Of a stretch of 64,000 bases of DNA, positions 33,907-41,896 are shown one piece after another (position 1 is the stretch's first letter; every line of letters begins with the position of its first letter). Location: positions 124,001 to 188,000 of the forward strand of contig JAHLLK010000001.1 of assembly GCA_020444165.1 (NCBI GenBank), given 5' to 3'. The stretch is from Deltaproteobacteria bacterium (GTDB lineage Bacteria > Desulfobacterota > Desulfarculia > Desulfarculales > Desulfarculaceae). Both the position numbers and the translations under genes were made by a program. The notes under the pieces are model-generated. The model was not told the DNA's origin. It ran no database searches and saw only the letters and a list, made by a program, of their open reading frames with translations.

Positions 33907-34310
33907 GGGCTTCTCTCCCAGGGGCGGCGGGGGCCGGGGTACGGTGCCCGGCGAGGTTCTCGCTTATGGCTCGGGGCCGGGGCCGGGCCCGGGGGCCGTG
34001 CTCGGCATCCAGGCTCATATACCATCAACCCGGCCCGGGCGCATGCTGCCACGCGGTCGCGCCCGGTGGCCCGGCCCCGGCGGGGGGGTGAAAAATATTT
34101 TCGCCCGGGTGTTACCAAAGTCCGTCCCCACGCGATGATAATGGTAGGGATGGCTGTACCACGTTAGCAGGGAGACGGGCCGGGTTCAATTTAAGACTGC
34201 CCCGCCAAGAGCGTCTCATATTACTAAAGCCGTCAAGGGACGGCCCTGACCCTGCAACGTTAATATGCTTCGGCGCCCCCTAGAGGGGGATCCGGAATAG
34301 GAGGTTCGGC
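33907..34310. other. Divergent spacer between hisD and the envelope-stress cluster
   Basis: This 404-base stretch should hold promoters for hisD (leftward) and for the cluster starting at 34311. Candidate AT-rich patches are AATATTTTCGCCC near 34091 and CGTTAATATGC near 34257, but I cannot pair either with a convincing -35. A small 6-bp hairpin, CCCCCT-AG-AGGGGG, lies near 34276-34289. No gene is supported. Confidence 0.4.
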
Positions 34311-35261
34311 ATGCATACCGGACACCCGCGCCTGGCCGGCCGACTGGGCCTTGTGTTCCTGGCTTTGGCCGTGGCCCTGCCCTTGACCGGGCCCACCCCG
34401 GCCCGGGCACAAGTTCAGAAGATCGGACCGAACACCAACCCCGTGCGCATGGAGGGGGGCAACCGCGGCGGCGGGAACCGCGGCGGTGATTACCGAGGCG
34501 GCAACCCCGGCGGCAACCGCGGCGGTGATTACCGGGGCGGCAACCCCGGCGGCAACCGTGGCGGCGATTACCGGGGCGGCAACCCCGGCGGCAACCGCGG
34601 CAACTGGAACCAACCCCGCCCCGGGGGCGGCAACCGCGGCAACTATAACCAGCCGCGTCCTGGCGGCGGTCACTATGACGGCCGCAATTACCAGAAGAAT
34701 TTCTACTACGGCCACAGGGACGGCCGGTACCATTACCGCGGCTCGCGCGAGGTCTACATCGACCGCCTGCCTCCCTATCACCGGCATTATGACTGGCGCG
34801 GCAGCCGCTACTATTACTATGGCGGGCACTTCTACCGGCCCCGGGGCACTGGTTTCTTCCTGGTGGCCCCGCCCATCGGCCTGATCATCGGCACCCTGCC
34901 TTGGGGCTACTCCACCGTGTTCATCGGAGGGGTGACCTACTACTCCTATATGGGCGTGTACTACCGCCCGGCCCCGATGGGCTATGTGGTGGTGACCCCG
35001 CCTGCGGTGGTGGAGGCTCCGCCCCCCGAGACCCTCGGCGTGCCCGAGCCCGGCACCGTGGTGGTGGTGGTGTCCAACGGCCTCAACGTGCGCCAGGGCC
35101 CCAGCTATCAGCATGCGGTGATCGCGGTGGCCAACCAGGGCGACCAGTTGGTGGTGCAGGCTTCGGCCCCGGGCTGGCTGTACGTGCAGTTGCCCGACGG
35201 GATTTTGGGCTGGGTGGACCAGCGCTACACCGCGCCGCTGGCTCCGCCGGCCAATGGATGA
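34311..35261 (+). CDS. Secreted Gly/Asn/Arg-repeat protein with DUF6515-like and SH3 domains
   Basis: The 316-residue protein has a signal peptide (about 1-33) ending in ARA. Residues 58-122 are five 13-residue repeats: three of GGDYRGGNPGGNR and two of GN(W/Y)NQPRPGGG. A Tyr/His/Arg-rich stretch follows (about 123-180), then a hydrophobic segment GFFLVAPPIGLIIGTLPWGY and GGVTYYSYMGVYYRPAPMGY, like the DUF6515 domain. A bacterial SH3 domain (about 245-310) begins VVVVVSNGLNVRQGPSYQHA. It is probably periplasmic or outer-membrane associated. Its stop overlaps the sigma factor start (ATGA), tying it to the regulator. Confidence 0.8.
   Translation: MHTGHPRLAGRLGLVFLALAVALPLTGPTPARAQVQKIGPNTNPVRMEGGNRGGGNRGGDYRGGNPGGNRGGDYRGGNPGGNRGGDYRGGNPGGNRGNWNQPRPGGGNRGNYNQPRPGGGHYDGRNYQKNFYYGHRDGRYHYRGSREVYIDRLPPYHRHYDWRGSRYYYYGGHFYRPRGTGFFLVAPPIGLIIGTLPWGYSTVFIGGVTYYSYMGVYYRPAPMGYVVVTPPAVVEAPPPETLGVPEPGTVVVVVSNGLNVRQGPSYQHAVIAVANQGDQLVVQASAPGWLYVQLPDGILGWVDQRYTAPLAPPANG
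34482..34676 (+). repeat. Five tandem 39-bp repeats inside the SH3 protein gene
   Basis: Units begin at 34482, 34521, 34560, 34599 and 34638. The first three are nearly identical at DNA level (GGCGGTGATTACCG, then GGCGGCAACCCCGGC); the last two are a divergent subtype. All keep the 13-codon period, so copy-number change would stay in frame. Confidence 0.85.
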
Positions 35262-35920
35262 GCCGGCGCGCGGTTCGGGCAGGGGAGGCGGCCTCATCCG
35301 AGGCTGAGGCCGCCGTCTCCGCTGCCGGCCCCCGGGACGAGGAGCTGATCGCCCTGGTTCTGGCGGGTGAGAGCGAGGCCTTTGCCCTCTTGCTGGCGCG
35401 CTACCAGGATCTGGTGACCCGGATCGTGGCCGGCAAGGCGCCCCGGGACCAGGCTCCGGAGTTGGTGCACGAGGTTTTTGTCCGTTGTTTCGAGAGCCTG
35501 GGCAGCTTCCGGCCGGAAAAGCCCTTTGGGCACTGGTTGGCCACCTTGGCGGTGCGCACCTGCTACGACTTTTGGCGCGCCCGGGGCCGGCGCAAAGAGA
35601 CCGTGCAGAGCGCCTTGAGCGAGGCCCAACTGGCCCAGGTGGAGAGCGTGGCCGCCGGCGGCCCGGCGGCGGCCAACGAGGCCCTGGAGCGTTTCGAGAC
35701 CTGGGAGCTGTTGGACTGGGCCCTGGGCCATCTTTCCCCGGGCGACCGCATGGCCCTGACCCTGGTGCACCTGGAAGGCTACTCCGTGGCCGAGGCTGCC
35801 CAGCTGTTGGGCTGGACCACCCCCATGGTCAAGGTCCGCTCCTCGCGGGCGCGGCGCAAACTTCGTCAACTGATCGGCCGGATCTTGCCGGCCGGGGAGG
35901 ATTCCGGTGACCAAACCTGA
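35258..35920 (+). CDS. ECF-type RNA polymerase sigma factor
   Basis: The protein has 220 residues from the ATG at 35258. Region 2 (about 30-95): EAFALLLARYQDLVTRIV, APELVHEVFVRCFESLGSFR and FGHWLATLAVRTCYDFWRAR. Region 4 (about 145-205): LSPGDRMALTLVHLEGYSVA, then EAAQLLGWTTPMVKVRSSRA as the helix-turn-helix. It lacks regions 1 and 3, as expected for ECF sigmas. Its 5' end overlaps the SH3 protein stop and its 3' end overlaps the next gene by 14 bases, the usual sigma/anti-sigma arrangement. Confidence 0.92.
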   Translation: MSRRAVRAGEAASSEAEAAVSAAGPRDEELIALVLAGESEAFALLLARYQDLVTRIVAGKAPRDQAPELVHEVFVRCFESLGSFRPEKPFGHWLATLAVRTCYDFWRARGRRKETVQSALSEAQLAQVESVAAGGPAAANEALERFETWELLDWALGHLSPGDRMALTLVHLEGYSVAEAAQLLGWTTPMVKVRSSRARRKLRQLIGRILPAGEDSGDQT

Positions 35921-36248
35921 TCCTCGGCGCGTAACCCGGGTGGAGCAATGGCTCGTGGCCTCCCACCAGGAGCGGCCGCCCCTGGCCCTGCCGCCGGGTT
36001 GGCGGGAAAACCTGCTCCGGGACATCCGGCTGGCCCTGGCGGACCAGGGAGCGCCCAGCCACCGCGAGCGGCTGTTGGCCTCCTTTACCGATGACCTCAT
36101 GCGCCTGGCCGGGGCCGGCGCCCTGGCCAGCCTGGCCGCCTTGACCTTTGCCTTGTTCTACGGCCGGGATCTGGCCATGCAGGCGGCCAACCTGGCCGTG
36201 GATTTCCCCTGGGCCGTGTTGCCCTTGGAACGTCTTTTGGGGAGCTGA
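35907..36248 (+). CDS. One-TM protein, probable anti-sigma factor
   Basis: The 113-residue protein starts at GTG 35907 with GGGGAGGATT upstream, inside the end of the sigma gene. An N-terminal cytoplasmic segment of about 65 residues (basic, with VEQWLVASHQERPPLALP) precedes one transmembrane helix (about 67-87: LAGAGALASLAALTFALFYG) and a short outer tail. It has no HxxxCxxC zinc motif. By position, overlap and topology it resembles small membrane anti-sigmas such as CnrY, but sequence similarity is not evident. The last base of its stop is shared with the following reading frame. Confidence 0.6.
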   Translation: MTKPDPRRVTRVEQWLVASHQERPPLALPPGWRENLLRDIRLALADQGAPSHRERLLASFTDDLMRLAGAGALASLAALTFALFYGRDLAMQAANLAVDFPWAVLPLERLLGS

Positions 36249-36298
36249 TGGCAGTCCCCGCCGGGCCTCGGCCGGCCCAGGGGACCAGGAGGAGGGGC

Positions 36299-36727
36299 AT
36301 GAACAAACGCCGTTTATGGCTGGGAGTGCTGGCGGTTTTCGCCTGCGGGCTGGTGTTGGGCTGGGTGGCCGGCACCAGCTACGAGAAATATGAGTCGGCC
36401 CGGCGCTTCCAGCTCATCCGCAGCACGGGCGGGCTCTACCTGGCCCAGATGGCCATGAAAAGGCTGAGCGCCAAACTGGAGCTGACCCCGGAGCAGGCAG
36501 GCCGTATCGCGCCCATCGTGGAAGAGGCCTTCCGGGAGATGCACCAGCTCAGAGCCAAGCTGCACCCCCAGTTCGAGAGCATCATGCGGGAGGTGACGGC
36601 CCGCATGAAAACCGAACTGACCCCGGAGCAGACGGCCGTGCTGGTCCAGGAGGGTGATTGGCGCATGCTCTTGCCCCACTCGCGCAAGAAGGGTTCCGCC
36701 CCCACGCCCACGCCGCCCGGAGGCTGA
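36299..36727 (+). CDS. Membrane-anchored LTxxQ protein (Spy/CpxP/CnrX-like sensor candidate)
   Basis: The protein has 142 residues from the ATG at 36299, with AGGAGGAG at good spacing. One N-terminal helix (about 6-27) anchors a helical periplasmic domain with two LTPEQ motifs (residues 62-66 and 107-111), the repeat that defines the Spy/CpxP family and occurs in the metal sensor CnrX. A Pro/Thr tail ends the protein. After a sigma and an anti-sigma-like gene, the likely job is sensing envelope stress or a ligand and controlling sigma release. There are no His/Cys metal clusters, so a metal signal is not supported. Confidence 0.7.
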   Translation: MNKRRLWLGVLAVFACGLVLGWVAGTSYEKYESARRFQLIRSTGGLYLAQMAMKRLSAKLELTPEQAGRIAPIVEEAFREMHQLRAKLHPQFESIMREVTARMKTELTPEQTAVLVQEGDWRMLLPHSRKKGSAPTPTPPGG

Positions 36728-36833
36728 GTCGCCTGAGACAAGACTCTGTTATACCAGACTATTAATGGTGGGCCTCCCCTCCCGTCCCCCGGGGAGAGCG
36801 GGCCGGGTCCGCCGCCAAAGGGAGTTGGTAAGG

Positions 36834-38219
36834 ATGAAACGGAGCTTGGCCACATCCCTGATTTGGGCCCTGGTGGCCCTGGCCGGGCCGGGGGCCGCGG
36901 CCTGGGCCGGGCCGACTCTCCCGCCGCCGCCCCGCTTCACCCTGGAGCAGTTGGTGGACCTGGCCCTGGAACGGAGCCCCAGCCTGGGGGTGGAAAGGGG
37001 CAGGGTGGAGGCTTCAGCGGCCCAGGTCACCCAGGCCCGGGCCGGGTACCTGCCGCAACTGAACGCCAGGCTGGGCTATGACCGGGTGTATTCCAACCGC
37101 CAGAGCACCTTTTACCGCACCACCACGAGCCTCACCTCCGGGAGCAGCGGCGGAGCCCAGGACGATTACCAGAGCAGCGTCTCCCTGACCCAGAACCTCT
37201 ACGACTTCGGGCGCACCAGCGGCCGCCTGGCGCAGAGCCGCCACAATCTGGAAATCAGCCGCAAGGGCCTGGTGGCCACCGCCGCGGACCTGGTGCGCGA
37301 CGTGAAGGCCGGCTACTTCGAGGTGTTGAAGCAGGAGGAGCTGGTGCAGGTGGAGGAGGAGAACCTGACCTCCCAGGAAAAGCACCTGGAGCAGGCCGAG
37401 GCCCTGTTCCGCCAGGGGTTGCGGCCCAAGATCGACGTAACCAAGGGTCAGTCCGAGGTGTCCAAGGCCCGGCTCACCCTGTTGCAGACCCGCTACGATC
37501 TCCGGCGGGCCCGGGTGGACCTGGAGCGCCTCTTGGGCGGACCGCCCGCCCCGGGCGGCTACACCCTGGCCCCGGCCGGGCCCAGCCCGTCCTTGCCCGA
37601 CCAAGTGGAACCTCTCGTCGCCCGGGCCCTGATTCTCCGGCCCGAGGTGGCCCAGCAAAGGGCCCAGATCGCGGCCAGCCTGGCCGGGCTGCGGGCGGCC
37701 CAGGGAGGGCACTGGCCCAACCTGAACGCGGTGGGCAATTATGGCTACGAAGGCAGCGAGTTTCCCTTGAGCGAGGGCTGGACCGCCGGGGTGGTGCTCT
37801 CCTGGGACTTCTTCACCGGGCTCCGCACCACCGGCGAGGTGGACCAGGCCAAGGCCGTGATCAACCAGGCCGCCTCCTCCCTGCAGCTTCAAGACCTGGT
37901 GGTCACCGAGGAGGTGACCAAGGCCTACCTGGCCCTGCACGAGGCTGACCAGGCCATCGTCACGGCCCGGGTCGGCCTGGCCCAGGCCCAGGAAAACCTG
38001 AACCAGGCCCAGGGCCGCTACCAGGCCGGGGTGGGAGACTCCTTGGAGTTCAACGACGCCCAGGTCCTCTACACCCAGGCCAAGAGCGCCTTGGTGCAAG
38101 CCAGTTACATCTTGTTGCAAGCCTGGGCCGAGCTGGAGCGCTCGGTGGGCGAAACCGCGCGGGCCATGACCGCGGAGTTCACCGCCCAAGCCGGCTCCAC
38201 CACCATGGGGAGTAAATGA
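36834..38219 (+). CDS. TolC-family outer-membrane factor
   Basis: The protein has 461 residues from the ATG at 36834. A signal peptide (about 1-25) precedes two outer-membrane efflux repeats (about 40-230 and 260-445). Motifs: FTLEQLVDLALERSPSL, GYLPQLNARLGYDR, LTQNLYDFGRTSGRLAQSRH and, in the second half, LSWDFFTGLRTTGEVDQAKA. It forms the outer-membrane channel-tunnel of the exporter whose other parts follow. The gap of 106 bases before it could hold its own promoter. Its stop overlaps the adaptor start (ATGA). Confidence 0.92.
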   Translation: MKRSLATSLIWALVALAGPGAAAWAGPTLPPPPRFTLEQLVDLALERSPSLGVERGRVEASAAQVTQARAGYLPQLNARLGYDRVYSNRQSTFYRTTTSLTSGSSGGAQDDYQSSVSLTQNLYDFGRTSGRLAQSRHNLEISRKGLVATAADLVRDVKAGYFEVLKQEELVQVEEENLTSQEKHLEQAEALFRQGLRPKIDVTKGQSEVSKARLTLLQTRYDLRRARVDLERLLGGPPAPGGYTLAPAGPSPSLPDQVEPLVARALILRPEVAQQRAQIAASLAGLRAAQGGHWPNLNAVGNYGYEGSEFPLSEGWTAGVVLSWDFFTGLRTTGEVDQAKAVINQAASSLQLQDLVVTEEVTKAYLALHEADQAIVTARVGLAQAQENLNQAQGRYQAGVGDSLEFNDAQVLYTQAKSALVQASYILLQAWAELERSVGETARAMTAEFTAQAGSTTMGSK

Positions 38220-39805
38220 TCATGCGGAAATATCTCATCTGGGGCGGACCCCTCTTGGTGGTGCTCTTGGTGTGGCTGGGCTGGTCGCAGTTCTTCGGGG
38301 GGAACAAGGCCGAGGCCAAGTTCCAACTGGCCAAGCTGGAGAAACGCGATCTGGTCAAGAGCGTCTCGGCCACCGGCACCCTGTCCGCGGTGATCACCGT
38401 GGAGGTGGGATCCCAGGTCTCCGGTCAGATCGCGGAGCTTTTGGCGGATTTCAACTCGCCGGTAAAAAAGGACCAGATCATCGCCAAGATCGATCAGGCC
38501 TCCTACCGGGCCCTGGTGCAGGAATCCCAGGCCGATCTCTCCCTGGCCCAGGCGCAATTGTTGACCAAGAAGGCCACGGTGGAAAAGACCCGGGCCGAGT
38601 TGGCCAGCGCCCGCTCCAAGGTGACGGCGGCCCAGGCCCAGACCACCGAGGCCCGGGCCACCATGGACAACGCCAAGCGCGAGGTGGACCGCCGCAAGAG
38701 CCTGGTGGCCAAGGACTTCATCTCCAAGGCCGACTATGACACGGCGGTCACCACCTATGACCGGGCCAAGGCGGCCATGGCCCAGTTTGCGGCCCAGGTC
38801 CAGGCGGCCCAGGCCGCGGTGGCCTCGGCCCAGGCCGGCTTGGCCATCGCCGAGGCCCAGGTGCGGGAGGCCGAGGCCCAGGTGGAACTCAAGCAGGCCA
38901 CTCTGGACAAGCGCAGCGTGGACCTGGAGCACACCATCATCCGCTCCCCGGTGGAGGGGGTGGTCATCGACCGGAGCGTGGACACCGGCCAGACCGTGGC
39001 GGCCAGCCTGCAGGCCCCCATCCTGTTCAAGATCGCCCAGGACCTGAAGAAGATGCAGGTCTCCACCAGTGTGGACGAGGCGGACATCGGCAGCCTGCGG
39101 GAGGGCCAGACCGCGGATTTCACGGTGGACGCCTACGGCTCCCGCAAGTTCGTGGGCTCGGTCACCCAGATTCGCAAGGCCGGCCAGAGTGTGCAGAACG
39201 TGGTGACCTACACGGTGATCATCTCGGCCGACAACCCGGACCTGGCTCTGATGCCCGGCATGACCGCCAACGTGGACATCGTGGTGGCCAGGAAGATGGG
39301 GGTGCTGTCCGCGCCCAACGCCGCGCTCCGCTTCCGGCCCCAGGCCGGCGAGGGAAGCGGCGGGGGGGCCGCGGGGGCTCCCGGCGGCGGCCCCGGCGGG
39401 GCCAACCTGCGGGAGCGGCTGACGCGGCTGGCCGACGCCCTCAAAATGACCCCCGACCAGCGGGCCCGCCTGGAGGCAGGCGCCCAGCAGCTCCGGGAGA
39501 AGATCTTCGGGCGGCAGCAAAACGGGGCGGTGCCTTTCCGCACCGGCGAGTTGGCCGACCAGATGCGCCAACAGCTGCACAACCTCATCGTGAGCCTCCT
39601 GACCCCGGAGCAACGGGACCGCTACGAAATCCTGGCCCGGGGCCGCGAGCTGTCCCAGGAAAAGCCGGGCGAGCTGTGGCGTCTGGGGCCGGACGGCCGG
39701 CCCGAAGCCCTGAAGGTGCGGGTGGGGGTCACCGACGGCAGCTTTTCCGAGGTGCGGGGCCAGGGCCTGGAGCCGGGCCAGGAAGTCATCGTGGGCTTGC
39801 AATAG
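38216..39805 (+). CDS. MacA-type periplasmic adaptor with an LTxxQ-like insert
   Basis: The protein has 529 residues. An N-terminal anchor helix (about 8-24) precedes the biotinyl-lipoyl barrel half (SATGTLSAVITVEVGSQVSG), a long alpha-hairpin (about 95-235, Ala/Gln-rich), the other barrel half HTIIRSPVEGVVIDRSVDTG, and a beta-barrel domain to about 360. At 376-396 a Gly/Ala linker begins an extra helical segment (about 397-470) with MTPDQ and LTPEQ, spaced as in Spy/CpxP proteins. The membrane-proximal strands resume at about 487 (PEALKVRVGVTDGSFSEVRG). Usual MacA proteins are about 370-400 residues, so the insert accounts for the excess. Confidence 0.9.
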   Translation: MIMRKYLIWGGPLLVVLLVWLGWSQFFGGNKAEAKFQLAKLEKRDLVKSVSATGTLSAVITVEVGSQVSGQIAELLADFNSPVKKDQIIAKIDQASYRALVQESQADLSLAQAQLLTKKATVEKTRAELASARSKVTAAQAQTTEARATMDNAKREVDRRKSLVAKDFISKADYDTAVTTYDRAKAAMAQFAAQVQAAQAAVASAQAGLAIAEAQVREAEAQVELKQATLDKRSVDLEHTIIRSPVEGVVIDRSVDTGQTVAASLQAPILFKIAQDLKKMQVSTSVDEADIGSLREGQTADFTVDAYGSRKFVGSVTQIRKAGQSVQNVVTYTVIISADNPDLALMPGMTANVDIVVARKMGVLSAPNAALRFRPQAGEGSGGGAAGAPGGGPGGANLRERLTRLADALKMTPDQRARLEAGAQQLREKIFGRQQNGAVPFRTGELADQMRQQLHNLIVSLLTPEQRDRYEILARGRELSQEKPGELWRLGPDGRPEALKVRVGVTDGSFSEVRGQGLEPGQEVIVGLQ

Positions 39806-39872
39806 CAGGCGGTTCTCCAACCTCCCGGCAGAACGCGTCCCCTTGCCCAGAGTCCACCCAAGGAGCCCAGAG

Positions 39873-40667
39873 TTGGCAGCAGAACCATCCCCAGAACCCC
39901 GGCCGGCCGTGGTGACCGCGGACCAGCCGCTTATCCAAACCCAGGACCTGGCCCGCGAATATTTGGTGGGCTCGGAAGTGGTGCGGGCCTTGCGAGGCGT
40001 CTCGGTGACCATCCAGCCCGGCGAGTTCGTGGCGGTCATGGGCCCCTCGGGTTCGGGCAAGTCCACCTTCATGAATCTTCTGGGCTGCCTGGACACCCCC
40101 ACCGCGGGCAAATACCTCTTGGAGGGACGCGAGGTGTCCAGCCTGTCCCCGGCCGAGCGGGCCCGGGTCAGGAACCGGCGCATCGGCTTCGTGTTCCAGA
40201 GCTTCAACCTGCTGCCCCGCACCAGCGCCCGGGAGAACATTGTGCTGCCCCTCAGGTACGCAGGGGTGCCGGCCAAGGAGCGCCTGGCCCGGGCCGCCCG
40301 GCTGTTGGAGCTGGTGGGCCTGGCCGAGCGCGGCGGCCACCACCCCTCCCAGCTCTCCGGCGGGCAGCAGCAGCGGGTGGCCATCGGCCGGGCCATGGCC
40401 AATGACCCGGCCCTGATCCTGGCCGATGAGCCCACCGGCGCCTTGGACACCAGGACCGGCATCGAGATCATGGCCCTGTTCCAGGACTTGAACCAGCGGG
40501 GCATCACCGTGGTGGTGGTGACCCACGAGCCGGAGATCGCCGGCTTTGCCCAGCGGCTCTTGAAGTTCCGCGACGGGGCCATGGTCAGCGACCGGCCGAT
40601 GGACAACCCCCGCCGGGCCCGGGAGATTCTTGGCCAGTTGCCGCCGCCCGGGGAGGACGAGGCATGA
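39873..40667 (+). CDS. MacB-type ABC transporter ATPase
   Basis: The protein has 264 residues from a TTG at 39873 with AAGGAG upstream. Motifs: Walker A GPSGSGKST, Q-loop FVFQSFNLLPR, signature LSGGQQQRVAIGRA, Walker B LILADEPTGALD and switch His in VTHEPE. This is the LolD/MacB subfamily of mechanotransmission ABC ATPases. In E. coli MacB the ATPase and membrane parts are one chain; here they are two genes overlapping by four bases. It powers export of a substrate from the periplasm through the TolC-like channel. Confidence 0.94.
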   Translation: MAAEPSPEPRPAVVTADQPLIQTQDLAREYLVGSEVVRALRGVSVTIQPGEFVAVMGPSGSGKSTFMNLLGCLDTPTAGKYLLEGREVSSLSPAERARVRNRRIGFVFQSFNLLPRTSARENIVLPLRYAGVPAKERLARAARLLELVGLAERGGHHPSQLSGGQQQRVAIGRAMANDPALILADEPTGALDTRTGIEIMALFQDLNQRGITVVVVTHEPEIAGFAQRLLKFRDGAMVSDRPMDNPRRAREILGQLPPPGEDEA

Positions 40668-41896
40668 AACCCTTGGACGCCTTGTCGGACGCCCTGCATT
40701 CCCTCAAGAGCAACATCCTCCGCAGCATCCTCACCACCCTGGGCATCATCATCGGGGTTTCGGCGGTGATCATCATGGTGGCGGTGGGCAACGGGGCCAA
40801 GGCCCGGGTGCAGCAGCTCATCCAGAGCCTGGGCTCCAACGTGATGATGGTGCGGCCGGGCAGCAGCGTGGGCGGTGGAGTGCACGGCGGCGAGGGCTCC
40901 CTGCCTACCCTGACCGAGGATGACGCCGCGGCCCTGGCCCGGGAAGTGCCGGGGGTGGCCGAGGCCGCGCCGTTTGTGCGCGGCGGGGTGCAGGCCATCG
41001 CCGGCAACCAGAACTGGGCCACCGCGGCGTATGGGGTGAACCCGGACTACCTGGTGGCCCGGGAGTGGCCCATCACCGTGGGGCGGGGCTTCGAACCCGG
41101 CGAGGTCAAGGGCGCGGCCAAGGTGGCCCTGTTGGGCTCCACCGTGGTCAAAAGCCTCTTCCAGAACGAGAACCCCCTGGGGCAGATCATCCGGGTGCAG
41201 AAGGTGCCGTTTCAGGTCATCGGCGTGCTGGGCTCCAAGGGGCAGACCCCCTTTGGCACGGACCAGGACGACGTGATCATGATTCCCCTGTCCACGGCCA
41301 AGCGCCGGGTCCTGGGGGGCCGGGAGCTGGGTGGTCACATCGTGGACGGCATCATGCTGAAAGCCCGCAGCGCCGCCGAGGTCACGGCCGTGGAGACCCA
41401 GGCCAAGGAGCTTCTCCGGCAGCGCCACAACCTGCGCCCCAGCGAGGACGACGATTTCCGCCTGCGGAACCTGGCCGAGATGCTGAACACCCAGGCCAGC
41501 TCCTCCCAGGCCATGGGCCTGTTGCTCATGGCCGTGGCCTCGGTGAGCCTGGTGGTGGGCGGCATCGGCATCATGAACATCATGCTGGTCTCGGTGACCG
41601 AGCGCACCAGGGAGATCGGCCTCCGCATGGCCGTGGGGGCCGAGGGCCGCGACATCCTGGCCCAGTTCCTCATGGAGTCGGTGGTGCTCTCCCTCATCGG
41701 CGGCCTCATCGGGGCCATCCTGGGGGTAGGCGGCGCCTTGATCATCGCCCAGGTGTCCCAGTGGCCGGCCATCATCGATCCGGCCTCGGTGCTGATGTCC
41801 TTTCTGTTTTCCGCCGCGGTGGGCATCTTCTTTGGCTTTTACCCGGCCCGCAAGGCCTCCCGCCTGGATCCCATCGCGGCGCTGCGTTACGAGTAG
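40664..41896 (+). CDS. MacB-type ABC transporter permease
   Basis: The 410-residue protein has the FtsX/MacB topology: one N-terminal helix (about 20-42, NILRSILTTLGIIIGVSAVI), a large periplasmic domain (about 45-270), then three helices including LLMAVASVSLVVGGIGIMNI and a cytoplasmic coupling segment SVTERTREIGLRMAVGAEGR. The C-terminal EPAxALRYE-like ending is RLDPIAALRYE. With the ATPase it forms a MacB dimer that docks on the adaptor. The substrate (peptide, lipoprotein, siderophore or drug) is unknown. Confidence 0.93.
   Translation: MKPLDALSDALHSLKSNILRSILTTLGIIIGVSAVIIMVAVGNGAKARVQQLIQSLGSNVMMVRPGSSVGGGVHGGEGSLPTLTEDDAAALAREVPGVAEAAPFVRGGVQAIAGNQNWATAAYGVNPDYLVAREWPITVGRGFEPGEVKGAAKVALLGSTVVKSLFQNENPLGQIIRVQKVPFQVIGVLGSKGQTPFGTDQDDVIMIPLSTAKRRVLGGRELGGHIVDGIMLKARSAAEVTAVETQAKELLRQRHNLRPSEDDDFRLRNLAEMLNTQASSSQAMGLLLMAVASVSLVVGGIGIMNIMLVSVTERTREIGLRMAVGAEGRDILAQFLMESVVLSLIGGLIGAILGVGGALIIAQVSQWPAIIDPASVLMSFLFSAAVGIFFGFYPARKASRLDPIAALRYE

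What the first reader, a model, noticed from the sequence alone, without database searches (positions are those of the whole stretch)
34311..41896. ECF sigma / anti-sigma-like / LTxxQ sensor module fused in order to a MacAB-TolC exporter
Eight consecutive plus-strand genes run SH3-repeat secreted protein, ECF sigma, one-TM protein, LTxxQ protein, TolC-like, MacA-like, MacB ATPase, MacB permease. Most overlap by a few bases. The regulatory triplet has the architecture of CnrH-CnrY-CnrX, yet the one-TM protein has no zinc anti-sigma motif and the sensor has no metal-ligand cluster. The output is a MacB-type, not RND, pump. A complete sensing-to-export unit with a surface-exposed repeat protein as first gene is not one I can match to a described system.
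Basis: partly seen in the sequence, partly recalled or inferred. Interest (0 to 1): 0.75.

Follow-up and report, generated by a model that had tools for sequence, protein, structure and literature searches.

The report
ECF envelope-stress switch driving MacAB pump
A sulfate-reducer-like bacterium carries, in one apparent operon, a sigma factor, a probable membrane anti-sigma factor and a periplasmic sensor together with the efflux pump they probably switch on; the three-gene switch itself is shared by several bacterial phyla, with its own promoter and different pumps.

Summary
The eight genes are there, in the order described. The sigma / one-TM / LTxxQ triplet is a conserved cassette: beside 80 sigma relatives from several phyla the one-TM gene follows in 78, the LTxxQ gene in 75. 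The one-TM protein is best read as a CnrY-like anti-sigma factor, the third as a Spy/CnrX-like membrane sensor without conserved metal ligands. I found the sigma's probable promoter, TGTAAC-N17-CGAC: an exact copy in 68 of 80 loci, in 66 just upstream of the sigma or its operon, and in 8 loci a second copy facing a divergent exporter. Outputs vary: RND pumps near 22 of 80, MacAB near 9. Elsewhere in these genomes copies precede a DUF6515-SH3 gene, a MacA gene and a TolC gene with MacB nearby. The window has one degenerate copy, 174 nt before its first gene, found post hoc. Triplet and exporter also occur apart in close relatives, and the window's MacAB lineage differs from Desulfocarbo's: repeated recruitment, not one inherited unit. 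The window's MacA carries an LTxxQ-like insert. Best reading: an autoregulated ECF envelope-stress/efflux switch, a new variant of the CnrYXH / SigAb-AabAB kind. No function was tested.

The parts
34110..34136 (+). candidate ECF promoter, variant TGTTACC-N16-CGAT
   Evidence: only match of YGWWACC-N16-CGAT in 64 kb, 0.10 expected; pattern chosen post hoc from this site and those of L002 and L090; against the cross-phylum consensus it has 2 mismatches and is one of 18 such sites, 23 expected
34311..35261 (+). DUF6515 + SH3_3 protein, probably exported
   Evidence: Pfam; Desulfocarbo homologue beside sigma; promoter-linked homologues L107, L127; signal peptide read by eye
34468..34669 (+). 39-nt tandem repeats coding a Gly/Asn/Arg-rich stretch of the SH3 protein
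35258..35920 (+). ECF sigma factor
   Evidence: PDB relatives sigmaE and CnrH; family
35907..36248 (+). one-TM protein, probable CnrY-like (class II) anti-sigma factor
   Evidence: follows sigma in 78 of 80 loci; AF2 two helices then TM helix; weak profile match to CnrY
36299..36727 (+). membrane-anchored LTxxQ (Spy/CnrX-like) sensor; upstream start at 36248 possible
   Evidence: family at 75 of 80 loci; profile match to CnrX-type and Spy-like families, Spy in PDB, LTXXQ in 36 of 49 rows; AF2
36834..38219 (+). TolC-like outer-membrane channel
   Evidence: OEP E 1e-64
38216..39805 (+). MacA-like periplasmic adaptor
39410..39634 (+). LTxxQ-like helical domain inserted in MacA
   Evidence: Pfam LTXXQ E 1.4e-4, 22.9 of 24.3 bits; hhalign to the sensor family P 97.5, E 5.5e-12; absent from 7 of the 9 other MacA aligned
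39843..40667 (+). MacB-type ATPase (start TTG 39843 or a GTG near 39910)
   Evidence: ABC_tran; best NCBIfam match MacB, under cut-off
40664..41896 (+). MacB-type permease (MacB_PCD + FtsX)

Best explanation
An autoregulated ECF sigma-factor circuit for envelope stress, joined in one operon to its effectors. At rest the 113-residue membrane protein holds the sigma with its two cytoplasmic helices, as CnrY holds CnrH, and the membrane-anchored LTxxQ protein caps or stabilises it from the periplasm. A periplasmic signal (most likely misfolded or damaged envelope protein, or an amphipathic toxic compound, rather than one specific metal) is bound by the Spy-like LTxxQ domain, which frees the sigma. 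The sigma then transcribes from a TGTAAC-N17-CGAC-type promoter (degenerate here, 34110-34136) the whole set: SH3/DUF6515 protein, the three regulators, and the TolC-MacA-MacB exporter that removes the offending compound. Shown: gene order, conservation of the triplet, the motif at sigma operons and at exporters in relatives. Inferred: co-transcription in the window, anti-sigma binding, the signal and the cargo.
For: Triplet at 75-78 of 80 loci. Motif: top bipartite word in 37 of 46 upstream regions, best word in one block shuffle 5; exact copy in 68 of 80 loci, 66 of them just upstream of the sigma or its operon. 24 of 32 genome-wide strict sites in 34 genomes lie at the sigma locus. Opposite-strand copy facing a divergent exporter gene in L006, L008, L011, L032, L039, L061, L074, L078. 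Off-locus copies upstream of DUF6515-SH3 (L107), MacA with MacB behind it (L110; MacB) and TolC with MacB about 5 kb on (L099). CnrY-like helices and weak CnrY match; Spy-like sensor. Four Nitrospira RND permeases score best as MdtB or MdtC. No terminator-like site on the + strand between 34349 and 41810 (5 sites found in the region, 5.0 expected).
Against: The promoter copy in the window is degenerate and was found with a post-hoc pattern. No second copy precedes TolC, and a 106-nt gap separates it from the triplet. Nearest relatives keep this MacAB lineage apart from the triplet. 49 of 80 loci show neither MacAB nor RND nearby, partly because contigs end. The backward-read pattern gives 27 chance hits in the same 34 genomes and a second control 8, so an off-locus site counts only through what lies behind it; 3 of 8 have no plausible target and 1 was not examined. 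Three of 9 MacAB-linked loci (L019, L040, L058) have no copy before the exporter. CnrY match is weak (hhalign probability 20, PDB E 1.0). No experiment.
Confidence: 0.66

Rival explanations
1. Neighbour, not target: the triplet regulates only itself and the SH3 gene, and the TolC-MacAB operon behind it is an independent unit that landed there.
For: The closest MacAB relatives (Dethiosulfatarculus 69%, G004 59%) lie away from the sigma without the motif; G013-G015 have LTxxQ-insert MacA but no sigma match; sigma found in 5 of 21 genomes of the order; 106-nt gap and no second motif copy in the window.
Against: MacB near the sigma in 5 of 34 genomes where about 0.16 is expected by hand arithmetic (the 34 were my choice, so approximate); several MacAB lineages recruited; motif copy before the exporter genes in 6 of 9 linked loci; no terminator-like site in the gap.
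Confidence: 0.2
2. A CnrYXH-type metal-resistance switch: the LTxxQ protein senses a metal and the pump exports it.
For: Same three protein types; profile match to CnrX-type sensors (P 90.7, E 1.3e-6); 13 of 49 sensors match Metal_resist at E up to 0.05; SigAb, the similar system of Acinetobacter, answers to copper (PMC12153292, passages).
Against: No invariant or nearly invariant His, Cys or Met in the 49-row sensor alignment; gene order differs; the four Nitrospira RND permeases tested score best as MdtB or MdtC and far under the CusA/CzcA cut-off; MacB is not known to me as a metal exporter (recalled).
Confidence: 0.12
3. The one-TM protein is not an anti-sigma factor but a membrane partner of the LTxxQ protein, and the sigma is controlled otherwise.
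For: No zinc motif, no Pfam family, weak CnrY similarity, no complex could be modelled.
Against: Follows the sigma in 78 of 80 loci, two-helix plus TM architecture; the similar-sized AabA inhibits SigAb in the same gene order (PMC12153292, section 10).
Confidence: 0.1

Closest known systems
SigAb-AabA-AabB, Acinetobacter baumannii (PMC12153292; passages and section 10 read)
   Same: Gene order sigma, 107-aa one-TM anti-sigma modelled like CnrY, periplasmic third protein; overlapping genes; autoregulated; few direct targets
   Different: Copper-responsive; -35 GTCAAC / -10 CGTT; no exporter or SH3 gene in the operon as described; whether AabB is an LTxxQ protein was not seen or tested
CnrYXH (Cupriavidus metallidurans) and copper-plasmid relatives in Sphingomonadaceae
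   Same: ECF sigma, small one-TM anti-sigma or hypothetical protein, LTxxQ-superfamily sensor, linked transport or resistance genes
   Different: Order Y-X-H; Ni/Co or Cu determinants; no motif copy with up to 1 mismatch in the pMOL28 stretch L089 (L096 has one exact copy inside its operon, minus strand); the two CnrH rows fall outside, on long branches
RpoE8 operon of Azospirillum brasilense (PMC12826043, passages only)
   Same: sigma, hypothetical protein, 'periplasmic heavy metal sensor'
   Different: Function not described in the passages seen; no exporter mentioned there
Bae/Cpx envelope response of E. coli (recalled, no call)
   Same: Works like: Spy plus MdtABC under one envelope-stress regulator
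   Different: Two-component systems, not an ECF sigma
MacAB-TolC
   Same: OEP, HlyD adaptor, ABC_tran, MacB_PCD+FtsX
   Different: ATPase and permease are separate genes; adaptor carries an LTxxQ-like insert
ECF16 / B. subtilis SigX promoters
   Same: (T/C)GTAAC-N17-CGAA (PMC8315932, passages) and TGTAAC / CGWC (quoted in PMC12153292, passage)
   Different: Other organisms and regulators; the motif type is shared, not diagnostic

Membership tests
CnrYXH regulatory system | ECF sigma factor | tested here: met
   CnrH is among the PDB matches
CnrYXH regulatory system | small one-TM anti-sigma with two sigma-binding helices (class II) | tested here: inconclusive
   AF2 helices 6-21 and 32-46, then 52-99 with the TM, mean pLDDT 85; hhalign to six CnrY-type proteins P 20, E 0.0011 against five control families E 0.02-0.57; PDB CnrY E 1.0, positions 10-103 of 107; fold comparison uninformative
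CnrYXH regulatory system | membrane-anchored CnrX-type sensor | tested here: met
   hhalign P 90.7, E 1.3e-6; long N-terminal helix and helical hairpin; closer to the Spy-like family (P 98)
CnrYXH regulatory system | metal-ligand set in the sensor (ligands recalled) | tested here: not met
   no invariant or nearly invariant His, Cys or Met among 49 sensors
CnrYXH regulatory system | gene order Y-X-H | tested here: not met
   order here is sigma, one-TM, sensor; compare
CnrYXH regulatory system | anti-sigma binds and inhibits the sigma | not testable with these tools
   no complex modelling offered; needs an experiment
Zinc anti-sigma (ZAS, class I) | HxxxCxxC motif | tested here: not met
   no Cys in the 113-residue protein; no Pfam family
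MacAB-TolC exporter | OEP + HlyD adaptor + ABC ATPase + MacB_PCD/FtsX permease | tested here: met
MacAB-TolC exporter | ATPase and permease in one chain as in E. coli MacB (recalled) | tested here: not met
   two ORFs; each matches one part of PRK10535, 260 and 267 bits of a 966-bit cut-off
MacAB-TolC exporter | cargo (macrolide, toxin, lipid) | not testable with these tools
   needs an assay

The most novel reading that the evidence does not exclude
A cross-phylum ECF envelope-stress system, counterpart of the Bae/Cpx responses, in which one helical LTxxQ (Spy-like) domain is used at three levels: as secreted chaperone under the sigma's promoter, as membrane sensor controlling a CnrY-like anti-sigma factor, and, in the window's lineage, built into the MacA adaptor so that sensing and export read the same ligand. 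Its regulon (Spy-like proteins, DUF6515-SH3 protein, MacAB or MdtABC-type pump) is repeatedly reassembled around the same promoter.
Probability: 0.4. Interest if true: 0.75.

Novelty: new variant of a known kind. Interest (0 to 1): 0.56.

Why it matters
It ties orphan families (an unnamed one-TM family, DUF6515, membrane LTxxQ proteins often labelled heavy-metal sensors) to one regulatory circuit with a defined promoter, so their function becomes testable with a reporter. If the reading holds, some LTxxQ 'metal sensors' are envelope-stress sensors, and one regulator repeatedly recruits unrelated exporters (MacAB, RND) in environmental bacteria.

Tried and rejected
Homologue searches with the one-TM and LTxxQ proteins alone found only themselves at E up to 0.01; family profiles were needed. 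No whole genome is held for the window, so the host's regulon was not scanned. Zinc anti-sigma and 'SH3-repeat' protein: rejected. Metal-specific RND output: not supported for the Nitrospira loci tested, whose 4 permeases (L055, L065) score best as MdtB or MdtC (just under to well under those cut-offs, over the RND_permease_2 cut-off). My first RND count, 32 of 80, was an overcount: L009's 'RND' is a histidine kinase; the recount is 22 of 80 (18 downstream, 3 divergent, 1 other). The RND labels of the tree carry that error; the MacAB labels do not. In one search the window piece was out of frame; one search replaces it. A shared site beside hisD: none of 15 window proteins but HisD matched near hisD in 4 relatives. 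VIA-align of the one-TM model compared one chain only and was uninformative; the sensor model was not searched by fold. The ECF reclassification paper (recalled) is not held, so this group may already bear an ECF number; literature searches listed no description of it that I recognised, in an open-access library only. Seven papers were opened, by passages or one section: PMC8103513, PMC7406223, PMC9045368, PMC12153292, PMC8315932, PMC12826043, PMC6917582 (95, nothing of use).
Full report
WHAT IS IN THE WINDOW. Eight plus-strand ORFs at 34311-41896 are confirmed with family support: DUF6515+SH3_3 protein, ECF sigma, a 113-aa one-TM protein without any Pfam family, a 142/159-aa LTxxQ-like protein, OEP, HlyD/MacA adaptor, MacB-type ATPase, MacB-type permease. 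The flanks are hisD (minus strand) and an rsgA-like gene (both named from the translations; no family scan). The HisD protein is 69-77% identical over its length in 15 of the 21 genomes of the order of Desulfocarbo (G024 70% partial, G022 66%, four without a match at E 1e-100), so the host probably belongs to or near that order. No other window protein tested lies near hisD in four relatives.

THE TRIPLET IS REAL AND WIDESPREAD. The sigma has 325 relatives at E up to 1e-10, the nearest 49-64% identical (120 listed). A scan of genome contigs with an alignment of 30 gave 161 relatives, of which the best 80 were kept; their titles name deltaproteobacterial or Thermodesulfobacteriota genomes, Nitrospirota, a planctomycete, Krumholzibacteriota and Lentisphaerae, many of them MAGs. 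By profile search a one-TM homologue follows the sigma in 78 of 80 and the LTxxQ homologue in 75 of 80. The one-TM misses are L007 (contig end) and L035; the LTxxQ misses are L007, L008, L019, L035 (125-934 nt left behind the sigma) and L069. A further LTxxQ-family gene starts within 1.6 kb upstream in 47 of 80 (either strand). The profiles were built from these loci, so the counts are not an independent test; the blast clusters from which they were built already held 62 and 75 loci in place (window row not counted).

THE ONE-TM PROTEIN. AlphaFold2 on 50 rows gives helices 6-21 and 32-46, a long helix 52-99 that contains the TM segment, and a short tail (mean pLDDT 85, pTM 0.35). The family profile has CnrY as its one near-full-length PDB match, but only at E 1.0, behind three shorter chance-like ones. 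hhalign gives E 0.0011 and probability 20 against six CnrY-type proteins, where five control families gave E 0.02-0.57. Two helices on the sigma's two domains is the CnrY (class II) arrangement (PMC7406223, passages). I read it as an anti-sigma factor; binding is untested.

THE SENSOR. The LTxxQ family matches the Spy-like family c60 (P 98), c5 (P 88), the CnrX-type family (P 90.7, E 1.3e-6) and not two controls. The best PDB match is Spy (E 0.0025); 36 of 49 members match Pfam LTXXQ and 13 of 49 Metal_resist at E up to 0.05. Its model is a long N-terminal helix and a helical hairpin (mean pLDDT 91). No His, Cys or Met is invariant or nearly invariant, so a metal site shared by the family is unlikely.

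THE PROMOTER. Without a prior model, TGTAA/GTAAC...CGAC at one spacing was the top bipartite word in 37 of 46 regions upstream of the operon; the best word in one block shuffle of the same regions reached 5. An exact TGTAAC-N15..18-CGAC occurs in 68 of 80 loci; in 66 it starts between 1654 nt before and 8 nt after the sigma ORF start, in L025 and L069 it lies elsewhere. Some of the 12 loci without it have little upstream sequence. 75 sites with 17 nt lie within 1.4 kb upstream of the sigma, both strands. In 11 loci a copy points the other way within 1.1 kb upstream; 8 of these face a divergent exporter gene (L006, L008, L011, L032, L039, L061, L074, L078), one a Spy-like gene (L020), two are unassigned (L010, L067). 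The strict pattern gave 32 sites in 34 genomes (141.5 Mb by my sum); 24 lie at the sigma locus. The same pattern read backwards gave 27 hits by my sum of the table, and a second control pattern 8, so position, not number, carries the evidence. Of the 8 off-locus sites one precedes a DUF6515-SH3 gene on another contig (L107), one precedes a MacA gene 288 kb away with MacB behind it (L110), two form a divergent pair of which one faces a TolC gene with MacB about 5 kb on (L099), one lies 12 kb from the sigma operon and was not examined, and three have no target I could recognise (L102-L104, no family scan). Of 13 DUF6515 matches in 39 genomes, 4 lie beside the sigma, L133 (= the L107 gene) has the exact motif upstream, L127 has it with one mismatch 102 nt upstream, and 7 have no motif upstream (L128, whose site is at the 3' end, L130, L134, L135, L137, L138, L139). 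The motif type is known: ECF16 uses (T/C)GTAAC-N17-CGAA (PMC8315932, passages) and B. subtilis SigX TGTAAC/CGWC (quoted in PMC12153292, passage).

THE PROMOTER IN THE WINDOW. The exact motif is absent. The window has this variant once in 64 kb, at 34110-34136, 174 nt before the SH3 start (expected 0.10). The pattern was chosen after seeing all three, so the significance is inflated. No copy precedes TolC; no terminator-like site is seen between the genes. Co-transcription is inferred.

OUTPUTS. A MacB permease lies near the sigma in 9 of 80 loci (8 by the rule, plus L004 at 8.7 kb). In 6 of the 9 the exporter genes have a motif copy in front; in L058 they follow the triplet in one strand run on a short contig; L040 and L019 have none before the exporter. 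In 34 genomes there are 46 MacB matches; by hand arithmetic about 0.16 would fall within 7 kb of the sigma, 5 do. I chose those 34 mostly for contig length, so treat this as approximate. RND permeases lie near in 22 of 80; the four Nitrospira permeases tested score best as MdtB or MdtC. Six Solidesulfovibrio-type loci carry a superoxide dismutase behind the triplet. In Dethiosulfatarculus the genes behind the triplet are branched-chain amino-acid enzymes. On the sigma tree MacAB linkage needs 9 changes, at least 5 forced by well-supported branches, no more clustered than shuffled labels (157 of 500 as low).

THE WINDOW'S EXPORTER. Its permease groups with Dethiosulfatarculus (69%) and G004 (59%), both unlinked to the sigma and without the motif, not with the linked Desulfocarbo gene. 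Its MacA has about 75 extra residues that match the sensor family (hhalign P 97.5, E 5.5e-12; controls 0.2 and 0.5) and Pfam LTXXQ just under cut-off. The insert is shared with L158 and L159 and, more diverged, with three genomes that lack the sigma; it is absent from the other seven MacA.

READING. The closest studied systems are SigAb-AabA-AabB (same order and a CnrY-like small anti-sigma; section 10 read) and CnrYXH. I commit to an autoregulated ECF envelope-stress and efflux switch. That Spy-like proteins plus an MdtABC-type pump mirror the Bae regulon of E. coli is recalled, not tested. The signal and cargo are inference.

Noticed in passing
window 39410-39634: MacA adaptor with an LTxxQ-like domain inserted before its C-terminal part; found also in relatives that lack the sigma.
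   Followed up: partly
L005, L009, L026, L028, L030, L041: Solidesulfovibrio-type loci carry an Fe/Mn superoxide dismutase behind the triplet (Pfam scan on L005 only; others by clustering).
   Followed up: no
L047: Nitrospira locus with four one-mismatch motif copies in two divergent pairs 3.6 kb apart, beside two response-regulator genes; -10 reads CGTC.
   Followed up: no
G030 C20:879991-880018 (UASB270): A strict promoter match 12 kb downstream of the sigma operon; target gene not examined.
   Followed up: no
L090:8980-9006: Second variant promoter just behind the sensor gene; the ORF after it has only a weak transposase zinc-ribbon match.
   Followed up: partly
order of G001, 21 genomes: The sigma is found in only 5 of 21 genomes, and not in the two with the closest HisD, G017 and G018: patchy, suggesting transfer or loss.
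   Followed up: no
L091:1720-1758: Two overlapping divergent motif matches within 40 nt upstream of the sigma operon; this contig appears to be the same as L015.
   Followed up: no
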